Positions 9,384 to 44,820 of a stretch of 64,000 nt of DNA are shown here, piece by piece. The translations under genes were made by a program, and so were the position numbers. This DNA is from Aequorivita aquimaris. GTDB taxonomy: Bacteria; Bacteroidota; Bacteroidia; Flavobacteriales; Flavobacteriaceae. Position 1 is the first letter of the stretch. Each line of letters begins with the position of its first letter. The DNA lies in NCBI RefSeq assembly GCF_001573155.1, contig NZ_JRWG01000003.1, positions 1-64,000 of the forward strand, in the 5' to 3' direction. Below the pieces are notes generated by a model. It was given only the letters and a program-made list of their open reading frames with translations. It was not told the DNA's origin and did not search any database.

Positions 9384-9390
9384 AATCACT

Positions 9391-9436
9391 TCTCTTATTC
9401 CTTTCTCTTTTCTCTTTTCTCTTTTTTCTTTTTTCA
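9391..9436. repeat. Low-complexity pyrimidine tract (TTTTCTC repeats)
   Basis: About 45 bases of T and C with repeated CTCTTTTCTC units between yggS and the DUF1015 gene. A similar tract lies at 34150-34190, between the SRP RNA and the SDR gene. Confidence 0.7.
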
Positions 9437-18207: not shown

Positions 18208-18263
18208 AGCTGCAAAAATAGATTGAATAATGCAGAATTAATAATGAATAAACAATATTGTGT

Positions 18264-18298
18264 AAAGAATAAAGAATAAAGAATAAAGAATAAAGAAT
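18264..18298. repeat. Microsatellite: AAAGAAT x5
   Basis: Five perfect tandem copies of the 7-base unit AAAGAAT, between the end of the histidine phosphatase gene and smpB, i.e. in the upstream region of smpB. Confidence 0.9.
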
Positions 18299-18309
18299 AG
18301 TGTCGCTCA

Positions 18310-19277: not shown

Positions 19278-19400
19278 GGTTTCCAATTTTTGAAAAAAAT
19301 TCCGTTTCAGTCTTTCTCTTTTTTTATTACATTTAGGACTCTCCCCGGTTGCGGCTCCTGCCGCTTATAGTATATTGTATAACTTTTTTATTGATTACTT

Positions 19401-19892
19401 ATGGCAAACATAAGCTACAACCAGATCCACGAAACGCTGGACGAGGCCACCTTGGCGCTTATACTTCAAAAAATTCAGGAAATAAGAGAGCTGCTGCCCA
19501 AAGGCACTCTCATTGATGCGGAACGCAAACGCTACCGCGCGCTAGACGTGCGCAACCTGGCCTTTGTGGAAGATGTGGTGCGGCTCAAGAACGGCATTGG
19601 CGCGGGCATCTTGCCCCCAGTACTGCTCAACGATAACACAGATACAGACCTAAAACTATTTAAACAACTGCAAACCCTGCGCAGCCACATAGATGGGCTA
19701 AACTATCTGCTGAAAGATGTGGAGCGCATCGTAGGGCACGAGGCCTACGGCACGGGGCTAGCGCACTATGGAATGTACAAGGTTACTGCAAAGGCGGGCG
19801 TTGCCAACGCACAAAGCGCGATGGATGAGTTGGCGTGGCGGTTTGAGAAGCAGGGAAAAAGGGAGAAAAAGAAGGGTGGGCCAAAAGAATAA
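19401..19892 (+). CDS. Unknown 163-residue helical protein in a GC-rich islet
   Basis: No family was recognised. The sequence is predicted helical with heptad-like spacing of Leu/Ile (LALILQKIQEIRELL at 17-31) and ends with a basic, Lys-rich tail (KREKKKGGPKE). There is no signal peptide or membrane segment. By eye the G+C of its lines is about 55%, against roughly 40% for its neighbours, and it uses codons such as GCG, CGC and CTG unlike the surrounding genes. Its stop overlaps the start of the next frame in TAATG. It sits beside the 21-bp repeat array and an HTH gene. It may be a recent acquisition; function unknown. Confidence 0.65.
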   Translation: MANISYNQIHETLDEATLALILQKIQEIRELLPKGTLIDAERKRYRALDVRNLAFVEDVVRLKNGIGAGILPPVLLNDNTDTDLKLFKQLQTLRSHIDGLNYLLKDVERIVGHEAYGTGLAHYGMYKVTAKAGVANAQSAMDELAWRFEKQGKREKKKGGPKE

Positions 19893-20122
19893 TGAATTTT
19901 GTTAGCCTAAAACATACAGCTGTTACAAATTGCCTAACACCCGTAAGGTTAAAACATACAGCTGTTAGAAACAACCTAAAACAAGTAAGTATAAAACATA
20001 CACTTGTTAGAAAACACCTAACATATGTAAGGTTAAAACATACTTCTGTTAGAAAACACCTTACACGTGTTAGGCTAAAACATACAGCTGTTGGATTTTA
20101 TTTTACAAAAAGCACTAATTAA
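19892..20122 (+). CDS. Possible heptad-repeat basic peptide read through the 21-bp array
   Basis: A 76-codon frame coupled to the previous stop by TAATG. Nine consecutive 7-residue units from residue 5, alternating RLKHTAV-like and RKHLTYV-like, each ending in Val, then a short tail. The peptide is very basic (many Lys, Arg, His). Because the period is 21 bp, a repeated DNA element would keep this frame open by itself, so the frame may be only a by-product of the array. The TAATG junction and the uninterrupted frame argue for coding; the dyad symmetry of the units argues for a DNA site. Undecided. Confidence 0.3.
   Translation: MNFVSLKHTAVTNCLTPVRLKHTAVRNNLKQVSIKHTLVRKHLTYVRLKHTSVRKHLTRVRLKHTAVGFYFTKSTN
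19904..20092. repeat. Tandem array of nine 21-bp units with dyad-symmetric cores
   Basis: Units start at 19904, 19925, 19946, 19967, 19988, 20009, 20030, 20051 and 20072. Position 10 (C), 13 (A), 19 (G) and 20 (T) are constant in all nine. Most units contain the core ACA-NN-TGT flanked as T/A-ACA-NN-TGT-T/A-AG, an imperfect palindrome; units alternate in two types, giving a 42-bp super-period. The spacing equals two helical turns, so sites would lie on one face of DNA. There are no spacers, so it is not CRISPR. Confidence 0.9.
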
Positions 20123-20140
20123 CTATAAAGACTACTAAAA

Positions 20141-20491
20141 ATGAAAACACAGAAGAAATTAATACCTCCACATTTAGGGAATTTACTGAAGATCTATTAT
20201 AAAAAAAACCGCATTAACAAATCTGGACTTGCGCGGGCCATGAACCGGAGCAGGGCGACCGTTCAAGATTATGAGGAGCGCAAGAGTTTGCAGTGCAATG
20301 TGCTTTGGGATATATGTGTGGCAGTAGAGCACAATTTTTTTGCAGACCTGGCCGCGCAATTGCCGCAAACCTACACCACAAACGTGCCCGAAGACACCAC
20401 CCAGGCACAACGCATTGCACAACTGGAGGAGGAAAATAAGATACTAAAAACAAAGGTAGATACGCTACTGGCGGTGGTGGGGAAGGGATAA
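20141..20491 (+). CDS. Small HTH protein with C-terminal coiled coil
   Basis: 116 residues. Residues 10-70 look like an XRE-type helix-turn-helix of the kind common in Bacteroidota: HLGNLLKIYYKKNRINKSGLARAMNRSR, ATVQDYEERKSL and a following LWDICVAVEHNFFADLA segment. From about 90 there is a leucine-zipper-like coiled coil (IAQLEEENKILKTKVDTLL), suggesting a dimer. It starts 18 bp after the frame that spans the repeat array, so it is the natural candidate for a protein that binds the array. That link is an inference from position only. Confidence 0.75.
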   Translation: MKTQKKLIPPHLGNLLKIYYKKNRINKSGLARAMNRSRATVQDYEERKSLQCNVLWDICVAVEHNFFADLAAQLPQTYTTNVPEDTTQAQRIAQLEEENKILKTKVDTLLAVVGKG

Positions 20492-20548
20492 ATTAATATA
20501 TTAGCAGAAACATGGAAAATTTACTTCATGTTGATATATAATAGTTGT

Positions 20549-21058
20549 ATGCCATTAGAGAGAACCGTGAAATACTTAATAATACTGACTTCAATTTTAC
20601 TCTTTAGTTGCTCAAATAGTGCGACTGATACGATTACGCTAATTCCTGATGGTTATACTGGACCGGTAAAAATTAGCCTTTGTGACGGAAAAGGAAAAGA
20701 AGAAAAATTGGAAAATGGAAAACGGATTTATGAAATTGACACTAACGGACTTTTGATTACAAAGTTTAAGGCGGAGTTCGGTTGGCAGTTTAACAAATAT
20801 TATTACGTTAAAGACAATAACAGACAAGAAATCCGATTTTTAAATTTCTATGATAAAGACGTGAAATTTGATAAAGATTCGGTTTATGTTTTTGGAGAAC
20901 AACACTCTGGAACTGGAAGCAAAACGGACAGTACAGGAACATATCAAACCTGTCCAATTATCACATTTTATGTAGGGAAATACAAGAATGTAGAAAAGAA
21001 AATGCACGATTTGACTATGTTCTCATTCAAGACAACAGAACTGATAAATGAAAAATAA
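20549..21058 (+). CDS. Unrecognised lipoprotein, islet cargo
   Basis: About 169 residues from ATG 20549, with a lipoprotein signal (VKYLIILTSILLFSC); GTG 20567 is another possible start, and an ATG at 20528 adds an unlikely extension. The mature part begins with a predicted beta region containing IPDGYTGPVKI, a phrase seen in small secreted proteins of unknown function, and has no catalytic motif that I can see. It is followed by paired inverted repeats and then the end of clpB, and it looks like an accessory gene together with the preceding islet. Confidence 0.65.
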   Translation: MPLERTVKYLIILTSILLFSCSNSATDTITLIPDGYTGPVKISLCDGKGKEEKLENGKRIYEIDTNGLLITKFKAEFGWQFNKYYYVKDNNRQEIRFLNFYDKDVKFDKDSVYVFGEQHSGTGSKTDSTGTYQTCPIITFYVGKYKNVEKKMHDLTMFSFKTTELINEK

Positions 21059-21166
21059 AAAACGGCATACAAAAATAGTAACCGTTGCACAACCCCTTAA
21101 TTTTTTAAGTCCGAACCAATATAAGCCGTTTTAAGCCCCCCGATACCGCACGTTTGCAACGTGTGG
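21059..21166. repeat. Inverted repeats between the islet lipoprotein and clpB
   Basis: AAAACGGC (21059-21066) is the reverse complement of GCCGTTTT (21125-21132). A separate hairpin follows: CCGCACGTT (21146-21154), loop TGC, AACGTGTGG (21158-21166) with one G.T pair. They may fold the end of the lipoprotein transcript or mark the edge of the inserted block. Confidence 0.5.
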
Positions 21167-21171
21167 TCTTC

Positions 21172-21209
21172 CAAAAAAACAAAACCCCTAGGCAAACGCC
21201 CAGGGGTTT
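21172..21209 (-). terminator. Intrinsic terminator of clpB
   Basis: On the minus strand a 12-bp stem (21182-21193 with 21198-21209, one mismatch) precedes a T7 run (21174-21180). Confidence 0.85.
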
Positions 21210-21231
21210 ATAGTTTTAATCTATTTATTGC

Positions 21232-23838
21232 TTACTTTTCATCAATAACGGCATCCTGGTTTCTAAAAACCAGTCCGTCATCAAAGCTATCCAGCAAGAT
21301 AACACTCTCGGTAGTAATTTTTCCGGCAAGTATTTCTTTACTAAGCTGGTTAAGCACTTCGCGCTGTATCACCCTTTTTACCGGCCTTGCGCCAAACTGC
21401 GGATCAAAACCTTTTTGTGATAAATAGGCAATGGCCTCAGGAGTTGCATCCAGCACAATGTTTTGTTTTAATAACATTTTGGAAACGCCTTTCAATTGCA
21501 GGCCAACAATTTTCTGGATGTCCGTTTTTGAAAGTGGCGTAAACATAATAATGTCGTCAATACGGTTTAAGAACTCTGGGCGCACGGTTTGTTTCAGTAA
21601 GGCAAGTACTTCTACCTTGGCACCTTCCATTGCAGTCTCAGGATCTTTCACGCTCTCAAAACGCTCTTGGATTATCTGGCTTCCCATATTGCTGGTCATA
21701 ATGATAATCGTGTTCTTGAAATCTGCCAAGCGCCCTTTGTTGTCGGTCAAACGCCCTTCATCCAAAACCTGCAATAGAATATTGAAAGTATCCGGATGGG
21801 CTTTTTCAATCTCGTCCAGCAATACCACGCTATACGGTTTGCGGCGTACGGCTTCTGTTAGCTGCCCGCCTTCATCATAACCCACATATCCGGGAGGGGC
21901 ACCCACCAAACGGCTCACACTGTGGCGCTCTTGGTATTCGCTCATATCGATACGGGTCATTGCGTTTTCATCGTCAAACAGATATTCCGCTAGGGCTTTT
22001 GCAAGCTCAGTTTTACCTACACCCGTAGTTCCTAGGAAAAGGAAACTACCTATTGGTTTCTTTTCATCCTGTAATCCTGCTCGGCTACGGCGTATGGCAT
22101 CACTCACTGCCTGAATGGCTTCGTCCTGGCCCACTACGCGTTTGTGCAAGTGGTCTTCCAACGTTAAAAGTTTTTCACGGTCGCTCTGCAACATTTTGGT
22201 TACCGGGATACCGGTCCATTTTGCAACTACTTCGGCAATATCCTCACGGGTTACTTCTTCTTTAATCATAGAAGAACCATCTTGATTTTCGGCAAGCTGG
22301 GTTTCAAGTTTGTTAAGCTCTTCCTGTGCTTCCTTGATTTTACCGTAACGCAATTCGGCTACCTTTCCAAAATCGCCCTCACGTTCAGCACGTTCAGCCT
22401 CCAGTTTGTATTCCTCAATTTGGGTTTTAAGGTTTTGTACATTGTCCACCACCTCTTTTTCACTTTGCCATTTTGCGTTGAGTTCGTTGCGTTCTTCTTT
22501 TAAATTTGCCAATTCTGAGTGAAGCGATTTCAGTTTGGTTTCATCTTTTTCACGCTTTATGGCTTCAATTTCAATTTCAAGCTGCATAATCTTTCTGTCC
22601 AAAACGTCCAGTTCCTCTGGTTTGGAATTAATTTCCATCCTAAGTTTACTGGCTGCTTCGTCCATAAGGTCAATGGCCTTATCGGGAAGAAAACGGTTTG
22701 TGATGTATCGTTCTGAAAGTTCTACAGCCGCAATAATTGCTTCGTCCTTAATGCGCACTTTGTGGTGGGTTTCATATTTTTCCTTAATTCCACGAAGAAT
22801 TGAAATAGCGCTCTCGGTATCAGGTTCATCAACCATCACCTTTTGGAAACGACGTTCCAGTGCTTTGTCCTTTTCGAAATATTTTTGGTATTCATCCAAA
22901 GTAGTAGCTCCAATGGCTCGCAGCTCACCACGCGCAAGAGCGGGTTTCAAAATGTTTGCTGCGTCCATTGCGCCTTGACCGCCACCAGCACCCACTAGGG
23001 TGTGGATTTCATCAATAAAAAGAACGATGTCTCCCTCACTGGAAGTTACTTCTTTGATTACGGCTTTTAAACGCTCTTCAAATTCCCCTTTGTATTTGGC
23101 TCCTGCAATAAGCGCACCCATATCCAGAGAATAGATTTCCTTCGACTTGAGGTTTTCAGGAACATCTCCGTCCACAATTCGGTGGGCAAGCCCTTCTGCG
23201 ATTGCGGTTTTACCAGTACCGGGTTCCCCAACAAGCATGGGGTTGTTTTTGGTCCTTCTTGAGAGTATTTGAAGAATTCTTCGTATCTCCTCATCACGGC
23301 CAATTACAGGGTCCAGCTTGCCGTCGCGGGCAAGTTGGTTAAGGTTTTTGGCGTACTTATTCAAAGAGTTGTAAGTTTCCTCGGCACTTTGTGAGGTTAC
23401 TTTTTCACCTCCGCGTAATTCATCAATCGCGGTTTTCATTCCTTTTTCGGTTACGCCTTGGTCTTTCAGGCTCTGTGCAATGCTGCTTTTTGAGTTTAGA
23501 ATCGCCAATAAAAGATGTTCTATGGAAACATATTCATCGCCCATTTTCTTGGCAATGTTGCTGGCTTCAAGAACCGTTTTGTTTGCTTCACGCGAAAGCA
23601 TAATATCGCCTCCAGAAACTTTCGGGAAGCTTTCAAGTTGCTTGTCCAAGATTTGTTTTAGGGTAACGAGGTTTACGTTAAGCTTCTTTAAGATGAAAGG
23701 CAAGACGTTTTCATCTACCTCAAAAATTGCTTTGAGGATGTGTTCGTTTTCAATCTGTTGGTTGCCAAAACCCTGCGCAATCTGTTGCGCTTGCTGTATG
23801 GCCTCCTGGCTTTTTATTGTAAAGTTGTTAAAGTTCAT
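21232..23838 (-). CDS. clpB: ATP-dependent disaggregase ClpB
   Basis: Hexameric AAA+ chaperone that threads aggregated proteins through its pore with DnaK. 868 residues, full length. It shows the N-terminal double Clp_N repeat (1-145), AAA domain 1 with Walker A GEPGTGKT (about 205) and Walker [10 protein letters not shown], the ClpB-specific coiled-coil middle domain (about 405-525), AAA domain 2 with Walker A GTTGVGKT (about 605) and the pore segment GYVGYDEGG, plus the C-terminal ClpB_D2-small domain. No heat-shock inverted repeat was found in the upstream 190 bases. It is monocistronic. Confidence 0.97.
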
Positions 23839-34112: not shown

Positions 34113-34211
34113 ATTTTTTATGCGCTAAACTTTCGTTGAAGCTTCAAAATTTTCTCTCTTTTCTTTTTTCTCTTTTCTTTTTTCTCGTCCTTTGCTTTTT
34201 AACAACCTTTT

Positions 34212-44691: not shown

Positions 44692-44735
44692 GTATTTACG
44701 ATTTTAGATTTACGATTTTGGATTTGAGAATTTTT

Positions 44736-44820
44736 GATGGATGATGGATGCTGGGTGCTGGGTGCTGGGTGACGGGTGACGGATGCTGGGTGCTGGGTGC
44801 GGAGTGTTGTATGAGGGATG
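44736..44820. repeat. Degenerate tandem repeat of GGATGCTGGGTG words
   Basis: About 85 bases of the pheT-MFS gap consist of GATGGATGATGGATGCTGGGTGCTGGGTGACGGGTGACGGATG-type words (6-7 base units). The reverse complement of the same words occurs at 11801-11829. Confidence 0.75.

What the first reader, a model, noticed from the sequence alone, without database searches (positions are those of the whole stretch)
19904..20092. Nine tandem 21-bp units with dyad-symmetric cores beside an HTH gene
Every unit repeats at exactly 21 bp (two helical turns). C10, A13, G19 and T20 are constant in all nine; most units carry ACA-NN-TGT with T/A-flanks, an imperfect palindrome, and units alternate in two types (42-bp super-period). 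This suggests an array of dimer sites on one face of the helix, like iterons, or a multivalent operator. The adjacent small HTH protein with a zipper-like coiled coil (20141-20491) is the obvious candidate binder. An open heptad-repeat frame also runs through the array; coding and DNA-site hypotheses are both open. I do not know this arrangement from described systems.
Basis: partly seen in the sequence, partly recalled or inferred. Interest (0 to 1): 0.78.

Follow-up and report, generated by a model that had tools for sequence, protein, structure and literature searches.

The report
Regulator-matched repeat array heading integron cassettes
Nine evenly spaced DNA repeats sit in front of a small regulator gene that probably binds them; in related bacteria the same gene-repeat-gene set recurs with different repeat sequence but nearly fixed spacing, and often stands at the head of captured gene cassettes.

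Summary
In detail: nine 21-bp units at 19904-20092 with dyad-type cores, in two alternating types. It is one case of a family. In Aequorivita and relatives a module recurs: gene A (helical, no known family), an array of about 10 units, gene B (Cro/C1-type HTH plus long C-terminal helix). Unit sequence differs between most modules; spacing hardly does (600 of 607 steps are 21 or 22 bp). Unit similarity tracks B's helix 2-3 (Mantel r 0.42; 0.27 without near-duplicates) and hardly B's C-terminus (0.14; 0.06, not significant), so B probably binds its own array. The peptide reading is contradicted. Arrays also occur with B but no A, and with A but no B. New context: behind B at least 20 of 52 loci show an attI-like end and a gene cassette with inverse R'/R'' cores; the window holds one such cassette (about 20549-21058). 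In this genome an integron-type integrase gene is followed by a site closely similar to those behind two other B genes; the window's site resembles the one behind a congener's integrase. Best reading: a private multivalent operator for B, part of a regulated integron platform with the integrase in trans. Binding is inferred; control of cassettes is hypothesis.

The parts
19280..21250 (.). variable block (A, array, B, one cassette) between the csbD terminator and clpB; absent in G012, G022, G005 and G008
   Evidence: in these four genomes sequence matching window ~19279 is followed about 100 bp later by sequence matching ~21254
19401..19892 (+). gene A, 163 aa, helical; no family above cut-off in Pfam or NCBIfam, none in PADLOC or PHROGs, no convincing PDB match; homologues across the phylum
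19904..20092 (.). array of nine 21-bp dyad-type units, two alternating types
19892..20122 (+). ORF through the array; judged not a gene
20141..20491 (+). gene B, 116 aa, Cro/C1-type HTH (recognition region about residues 36-48) and long C-terminal helix
20492..20546 (+). attI-like stretch behind B, ending at GTT (core GTTGTATGCC at 20544-20553); left boundary not defined
   Evidence: a stretch 82% identical over 50 bp follows the integrase gene of G024
20549..21058 (+). cassette gene, DUF6843; the mechanical ORF starts at 20528 inside the att stretch, the first in-frame ATG past the core is 20549 (direct reading)
21064..21130 (+). 5' part of an attC-like end; GGCATACAA (21064-21072) is the inverse complement of TTGTATGCC at the cassette start; further end unclear
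   Evidence: not found by the attC model

Best explanation
The array is a private, multivalent operator for B. B dimers (Cro/C1 HTH at one end, zipper-like helix at the other) bind the roughly palindromic units, which lie two helical turns apart on one face of the DNA just upstream of B, so that about ten dimers can load side by side and control B's own promoter region. Most modules have their own unit sequence matched by their own recognition helix, while B's C-terminus is better kept. In Aequorivita and some relatives this module is the head of an integron-type platform: B is followed by an attI-like site into which gene cassettes are inserted, and an integrase is encoded elsewhere next to a similar site. 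Shown by computation: array, period, module, covariation, att and cassette anatomy, integrase beside a similar site. Inferred: that B binds, that binding regulates B, that transcription from the array or from the -7-like box behind B reaches the cassettes, and that the integrase acts in trans. The role of A is unknown.
For: Module: 50 of 62 distinct B loci inspected have an array in front of B (the 12 without are listed under Tried and rejected); 66 of the 67 regions then modelled (50 B-linked, 17 A-only, picked after inspection) score above every one of 603 shuffles. 488 of 607 steps are 21 bp and 112 are 22, with 17-26 allowed (orthologues included). Covariation: unit similarity against helix 2-3 identity r=0.418 (46 arrays), 0.269 (40 without near-duplicates), 0.228 (36), none of 2000 permutations as high in each. 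Helix 2-3 keeps partial r=0.477 (27 modules) and 0.342 (23) after correcting for A and the B C-terminus. Within one genome 39 of 42 pairs have unlike units (Z<=4); median identity there is 0.40 for helix 2-3 and 0.56 for the C-terminus. Position: the array ends a median 36 bp before the B match start; a terminator-like hairpin lies behind A in 16 of 20 A+B modules. Integron: exact 8-nt inverse R'/R'' in 20 of 52 loci against 1, 0 and 3 of 52 in controls, 9-nt in 13 against 1, 0 and 1; TAnnTTTG within 60 bp behind B in 29 of 52 against 0.044 expected per locus. attC consensus: 10 of 13 pairs with two-sided changes. 11 attC-model hits in this genome, a lower bound (150 of 1673 candidates scored). 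Integrase G000:C10 followed by a site closely similar to those behind B on C14 and C2.
Against: No binding or expression data. Dyad symmetry is below p 0.05 in only 35 of 67 arrays; asymmetric units exist (L060, L091, L058). In the full set the B C-terminus also correlates weakly (0.136, p 0.002). A identity covaries with the units (partial r 0.338 and 0.242), so shared descent or A itself explains part. Arrays exist behind A without a linked B (17 of 22 loci). Two good B relatives have no clear array (L114, L119). The window's own module lacks the hairpin behind A and the exact TAnnTTTG box, and its attC-like end is not found by the attC model. No 10-nt R'/R'' match was found (0 of 52; 0-1 in controls). 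Arrays also fold as RNA, on both strands.
Confidence: 0.7

Rival explanations
1. The array is a structural DNA element (anchor, insulator or partition-like site) primarily tied to A; B was added later and adapted to it.
For: A is followed by an array in 17 of 22 loci without a linked B across the phylum, against 0 of 21 scored upstream controls; unit sequence is free while the period is kept; A covaries with units.
Against: No NTPase or DNA-binding family found in A; array and B persist where A is lost or truncated (L005, L022, L011); helix 2-3 covaries independently of A.
Confidence: 0.2
2. The array works as RNA: a leader of short hairpins in the B transcript.
For: Sense-strand folding below z -2 in 29 of 50 B arrays against dinucleotide shuffles and 27 of 50 against unit-column shuffles.
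Against: Antisense folds as well (32 and 24 of 50), as expected of DNA dyads; in the window changes in one half-site are not matched in the other (direct reading); helix-unit covariation.
Confidence: 0.08
3. The array encodes a heptad-repeat peptide.
For: An open frame of 76 codons runs through it; 6 of 50 B-linked arrays have an open sense frame.
Against: 44 of 50 B-linked arrays lack an open sense frame; 8 arrays run mainly at 22 bp; most changed codons are nonsynonymous.
Confidence: 0.02
4. Neutral tandem duplication without function.
For: Unit sequence turns over between modules.
Against: Period held at 21-22 bp in 600 of 607 steps, similar position in front of B, covariation with the HTH, recurrence across the phylum.
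Confidence: 0.03

Closest known systems
Autoregulators of the Cro/C1 family with repeated operators (HipB, restriction controller C proteins; the operator facts are recalled)
   Same: Cro/C1 fold (HipB and C.Esp1396I among the Foldseek matches); palindromic sites upstream of the regulator gene
   Different: about 10 sites at two-turn spacing instead of a few; no toxin or methylase partner recognised; diverging matched pairs; integron-type site behind
Treponema-type integrons, intI transcribed towards attI (PMC3607928, passages seen)
   Same: integrase gene reads towards the att site and the cassettes
   Different: integrase below the IntI cut-off, with one profile stretch unmatched; further attI-like sites lie behind A-array-B without a local integrase
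CALIN, clusters of attC lacking an integrase (PMC9024848 and PMC8618304, passages seen)
   Same: cassettes without a neighbouring integrase
   Different: here an attI-like site and a regulator module stand at the head
Replication iterons and partition arrays (recalled)
   Same: tandem sites in helical phase next to a DNA-binding gene
   Different: no Rep, origin or NTPase seen; several unlike copies per genome
TAACTGA heptamer repeats (PMC4679880, passages seen)
   Same: intergenic direct repeats, reported also from Aequorivita sublithincola
   Different: 7-bp unit; these arrays show no excess at lag 7

Membership tests
Integron (platform behind B) | gene cassettes with inverse R'/R'' cores and a foldable attC | tested here: met
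   20 of 52 loci with an exact 8-nt inverse against 1, 0 and 3 of 52 in controls; 10 of 13 consensus pairs with two-sided changes, up to 5 of 14 sequences breaking a pair; the window's own attC-like end is incomplete
Integron (platform behind B) | attI-like site at the head of the cassettes | tested here: met
   closely similar sites behind the integrase on C10 and behind B on C14 and C2; the window's site is of another type, similar to that behind the G024 integrase
Integron (platform behind B) | adjacent canonical IntI | tested here: not met
   0 of 28 genomes above the TIGR02249 cut-off, and hits below it occur in all 14 control genomes; an integron-type tyrosine recombinase exists elsewhere, 219 bits against 265 for the G024 copy
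Integron (platform behind B) | recombination of cassettes at the site | not testable with these tools
   only different first cassettes between loci were seen
Multivalent operator of its neighbouring HTH protein | site sequence covaries with the recognition helix | tested here: met
Multivalent operator of its neighbouring HTH protein | binding and regulation | not testable with these tools
   needs footprinting and expression data
Replication iteron | Rep gene or replicon context | tested here: not met
   no Rep seen in the loci read; no B relative in 72,556 plasmid or 50,697 phage records
Type II toxin-antitoxin | paired toxin next to the antitoxin-like HTH | tested here: inconclusive
   A has no toxin family above cut-off; usually a hairpin and the array intervene; no assay possible
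Coding repeat (peptide) | frame conserved among copies | tested here: not met
   6 of 50 arrays have an open sense frame

The most novel reading that the evidence does not exclude
A phylum-wide DNA module in which sequence is free but spacing is fixed: A marks an array that nucleates a protein filament, and in flavobacteria a co-diversifying B makes each array a private address. Several such addresses per genome act as regulated docking platforms for integron cassettes, fed by an integrase in trans, so that different sets of captured genes come under different, non-cross-talking regulators.
Probability: 0.3. Interest if true: 0.92.

Novelty: new variant of a known kind. Interest (0 to 1): 0.8.

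Why it matters
It gives a natural set of matched HTH-array pairs (46 compared here) for testing how recognition helices and sites co-diversify. It also points to an integron-type system in which cassettes sit behind a dedicated regulator and operator array, away from the integrase. Integrons are listed for Bacteroidota as a phylum (PMC8618304, passage), but IntegronFinder 2.0 speaks of only In0 elements earlier and one complete integron, in Salinibacter, for Bacteroidetes proper (PMC9024848, passage). A regulated platform would bear on an open question of integron biology, how cassette expression is controlled. The A-array association without B is unexplained and directly testable.

Tried and rejected
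Peptide reading: rejected. A 7-bp or 10/11-bp direct sub-period: no excess. Mobile-element origin: no relative of B or A in viral contigs, none of B in plasmids or phages. Defence or phage families: none for A; B only weak hits. Known fold for A: no convincing one. RNA element: folding does not discriminate. I first took CCGTTGCACAACCCC behind the cassette for the end of the cassette block; it recurs behind many cassettes, twice in one locus, so it is more likely part of an attC subtype. An R'/R'' hit beside the G001 integrase (L253) lies where the antisense of B runs and was not counted. One control region that scored 80 (L031) overlaps a real array by its coordinates; among the other 77 the highest is 20.5, which the weakest arrays (L083 21, L126 22, L157a 22; L113 10 is below) hardly pass or miss.

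Rows left out. Of 62 distinct B loci inspected (L118 repeats L019) 50 went into. Left out: L017 and L027 (decayed B), L114 and L119 (B relatives without a clear array), L120-L125 (distant HTH, no clear array), L097 and L098 (weak matches, no array). From the covariation test L018 (frame), L019, L028 (truncated B) and L128 (near-copy of L127) were left out: 46 of 50; 27 of 28 A-B pairs. The 17 A-only arrays were picked after inspection; one search counts without picking 22 of the 25 A loci without linked B held (L133 at a contig end and the fragments L149 and L150 not scored; L141 and L142 are near-copies): 17 above 21, L132 and L138 at 17 and 19, three at 1 or less; L137 has an array further downstream, not counted. 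The hairpin behind A was found in only 7 of 16 A-only loci. Integrase loci: 27 of the 30 held were examined; no separate control was run for their R'/R'' matches.

Literature: eight searches listed no report of these arrays or of an Aequorivita integron; the library holds open-licence PMC papers only. Passages seen: PMC4679880, PMC9024848, PMC8618304, PMC3607928; word look-ups without a hit in PMC8352920 and PMC10963911; the others only as listings with the start of the abstract.

Full report
What is there. The window is the start of contig C3 of its genome; the genus is Aequorivita, inferred from contigs of congeners that reappear with titles (G010:C4 and NVXN01000005.1, both 182,843 bases). 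The nine units at 19904-20092 are 21-mers with five constant positions and imperfect dyads. Left of them is gene A (163 aa), right of them gene B (116 aa). AlphaFold2 gives B a Cro/C1-type HTH and a C-terminal helix 86-113 (best Foldseek matches ClgR and HipB, E about 6e-3). A is all-helical without a convincing PDB match.

It is a family. A and B homologues recur as A-array-B, with up to five B matches per genome in the first search. In the genus 20 of 28 genomes match the B profile, some only with fragments; in the family 3 of 397 sampled genomes, two of them of this genus; in the phylum sample 14 of 395, the six weakest without a clear array. A matches in 21 of 296 phylum genomes. Most modules have their own unit sequence. 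Of 62 distinct B loci inspected 50 have an array. A model of spaced units scores 66 of 67 chosen regions above all 603 shuffles (the exception is L113). Of 607 steps 488 are 21 bp, 112 are 22, 5 are 20 and 2 are 23, although 17-26 were allowed. Dyad symmetry is significant (p<0.05) in 35 of 67: common but not universal.

Who reads it. Unit profiles of 46 arrays were compared pairwise with B identity by region. Helix 2-3 (residues 27-51) gives r=0.418, and 0.269 and 0.228 in sets without near-duplicates; none of 2000 permutations was as high in any of the three. The C-terminus (63-110) gives 0.136 in the full set (p=0.002) and 0.060 and 0.061 (p 0.12 and 0.14) in the reduced sets. Residues 10-26 and helix 4 correlate too (0.257, 0.275 in the full set) but keep little once helix 2-3 is accounted for (0.038, 0.171). 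As a control for linkage, A, which borders the array on the other side, was added: helix 2-3 keeps partial r 0.477 (27 modules) and 0.342 (23); A keeps 0.338 and 0.242; the B C-terminus keeps none. So B's recognition region tracks the units beyond shared descent, while part of the signal is descent or a link to A. Example across genera: L005 (Aequorivita) and L101 (Halomarinibacterium) have 0.59 identity in residues 23-51 and very similar units (Z 9.2). Inside one genome 39 of 42 pairs have unlike units; in G017 three modules have C-termini 88-90% identical and helix 2-3 only 16-40% identical.

Where it acts. In 16 of 20 A+B modules a terminator-like hairpin stands behind A (0 of 20 in a control stretch inside A), and the array ends a median 36 bp (quartiles 29-55) before the start of the B match, which can lie some codons inside B. 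That is the position of an operator for B. The four modules without the hairpin belong to the type found beside clpB, the window's among them. Modules with A lost or truncated keep array and B (L005, L022, L011). Conversely 17 of 22 scored A loci without a linked B have an array behind A, while none of 21 scored upstream control regions has one. This second association is not explained by B.

The integron context. Behind B many loci share a stretch that stops at GTT(A/G), after which they continue with different genes. The start of the following unit and its 3' end carry inverse complementary cores: exact 8-nt matches in 20 of 52 loci, against 1, 0 and 3 of 52 for direct, reversed and complementary controls; 9-nt matches in 13 against 1, 0 and 1; 10-nt in none against 1, 0 and 1. 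Many loci were held only 1.5 kb deep. Fourteen such ends align into a stem in which 10 of 13 pairs are changed on both sides and kept in at least one sequence. A model from them, built without any sequence of this genome, finds 11 sites in it. A Bacteroidota-type -7 box (TAnnTTTG; motif recalled) lies within 60 bp behind B in 29 of 52 loci against 0.044 expected per locus; the window has TATATTAG instead. The integrases nearest to these sites resemble integron integrases below the cut-off and leave profile positions about 182-238 unmatched (that this stretch is IntI-specific is recalled). Of 27 integrase loci examined, 14 have an exact 8-9 nt R'/R'' pair directly downstream, in the direction of the cassettes, the orientation known from Treponema (PMC3607928). 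In this genome the integrase on C10 is followed by a site that shares GCACATGTGCGGGATAGCAGCAATA and the CGTATATANACATGT end with the sites behind B on C14 and C2. The site behind the window's B is of another type and resembles the one behind the G024 integrase (82% over 50 bp). Halomarinibacterium G298 has B-linked cassettes, but its best integrase match (1.5e-36) showed no such pair.

The window. The block 19280-21250 is absent in four congeners at the same site. It holds A, array, B, attI-like stretch with core at 20544, one cassette gene (DUF6843) and the first part of an attC-like end at 21064. In G017 and G010 the orthologous A-array-B is followed by another B end, another att stretch and other genes, so B's 3' end and the att stretch appear to move together.

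Not everywhere. Eight B loci with arrays showed no att core and cassette downstream (L113, L126, L115, L117, L087, L094, L095, L083). The array-B pair is therefore broader than its integron use.

Verdict. Observation confirmed; DNA-site reading supported, peptide reading contradicted. Most likely a private multivalent operator of B, which in these bacteria often heads an integron-type platform. Binding, regulation and recombination are untested.

Noticed in passing
G000:C10:81752-82549 (L245) and relatives in L234-L259: Tyrosine integrase of integron type, transcribed towards an att core and cassette in 14 of 27 loci examined; below the IntI cut-off where scanned.
   Followed up: partly
L169 (G004:C1:38500-53000): Cassette block with three copies of a partial B C-terminus plus att stretch, each followed by other genes.
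   Followed up: partly
L160 (G000:C15:1500-4700); L161-L163: In L160 an A start (34 aa) lies beside a B end plus att stretch, as if the middle with the array had been deleted; L161-L163 carry similar B ends and att stretches.
   Followed up: no
G000:C4:3784-10435: Five attC-model hits within 7 kb: a cassette cluster without a B match in these searches.
   Followed up: no
window 9390-9432, 18240-18299, 34150-34200, 44735-44820: Tandem repeats with period 7 or multiples of 7; heptamer repeats of another sequence are reported from Aequorivita sublithincola (PMC4679880).
   Followed up: no
upstream of A in several modules, e.g. L050, L056, L060: Shared leader with CAGGAAAAACCCTG-like and GGGGGATTTCCCCC-like inverted repeats before TTGAC; function unknown.
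   Followed up: no
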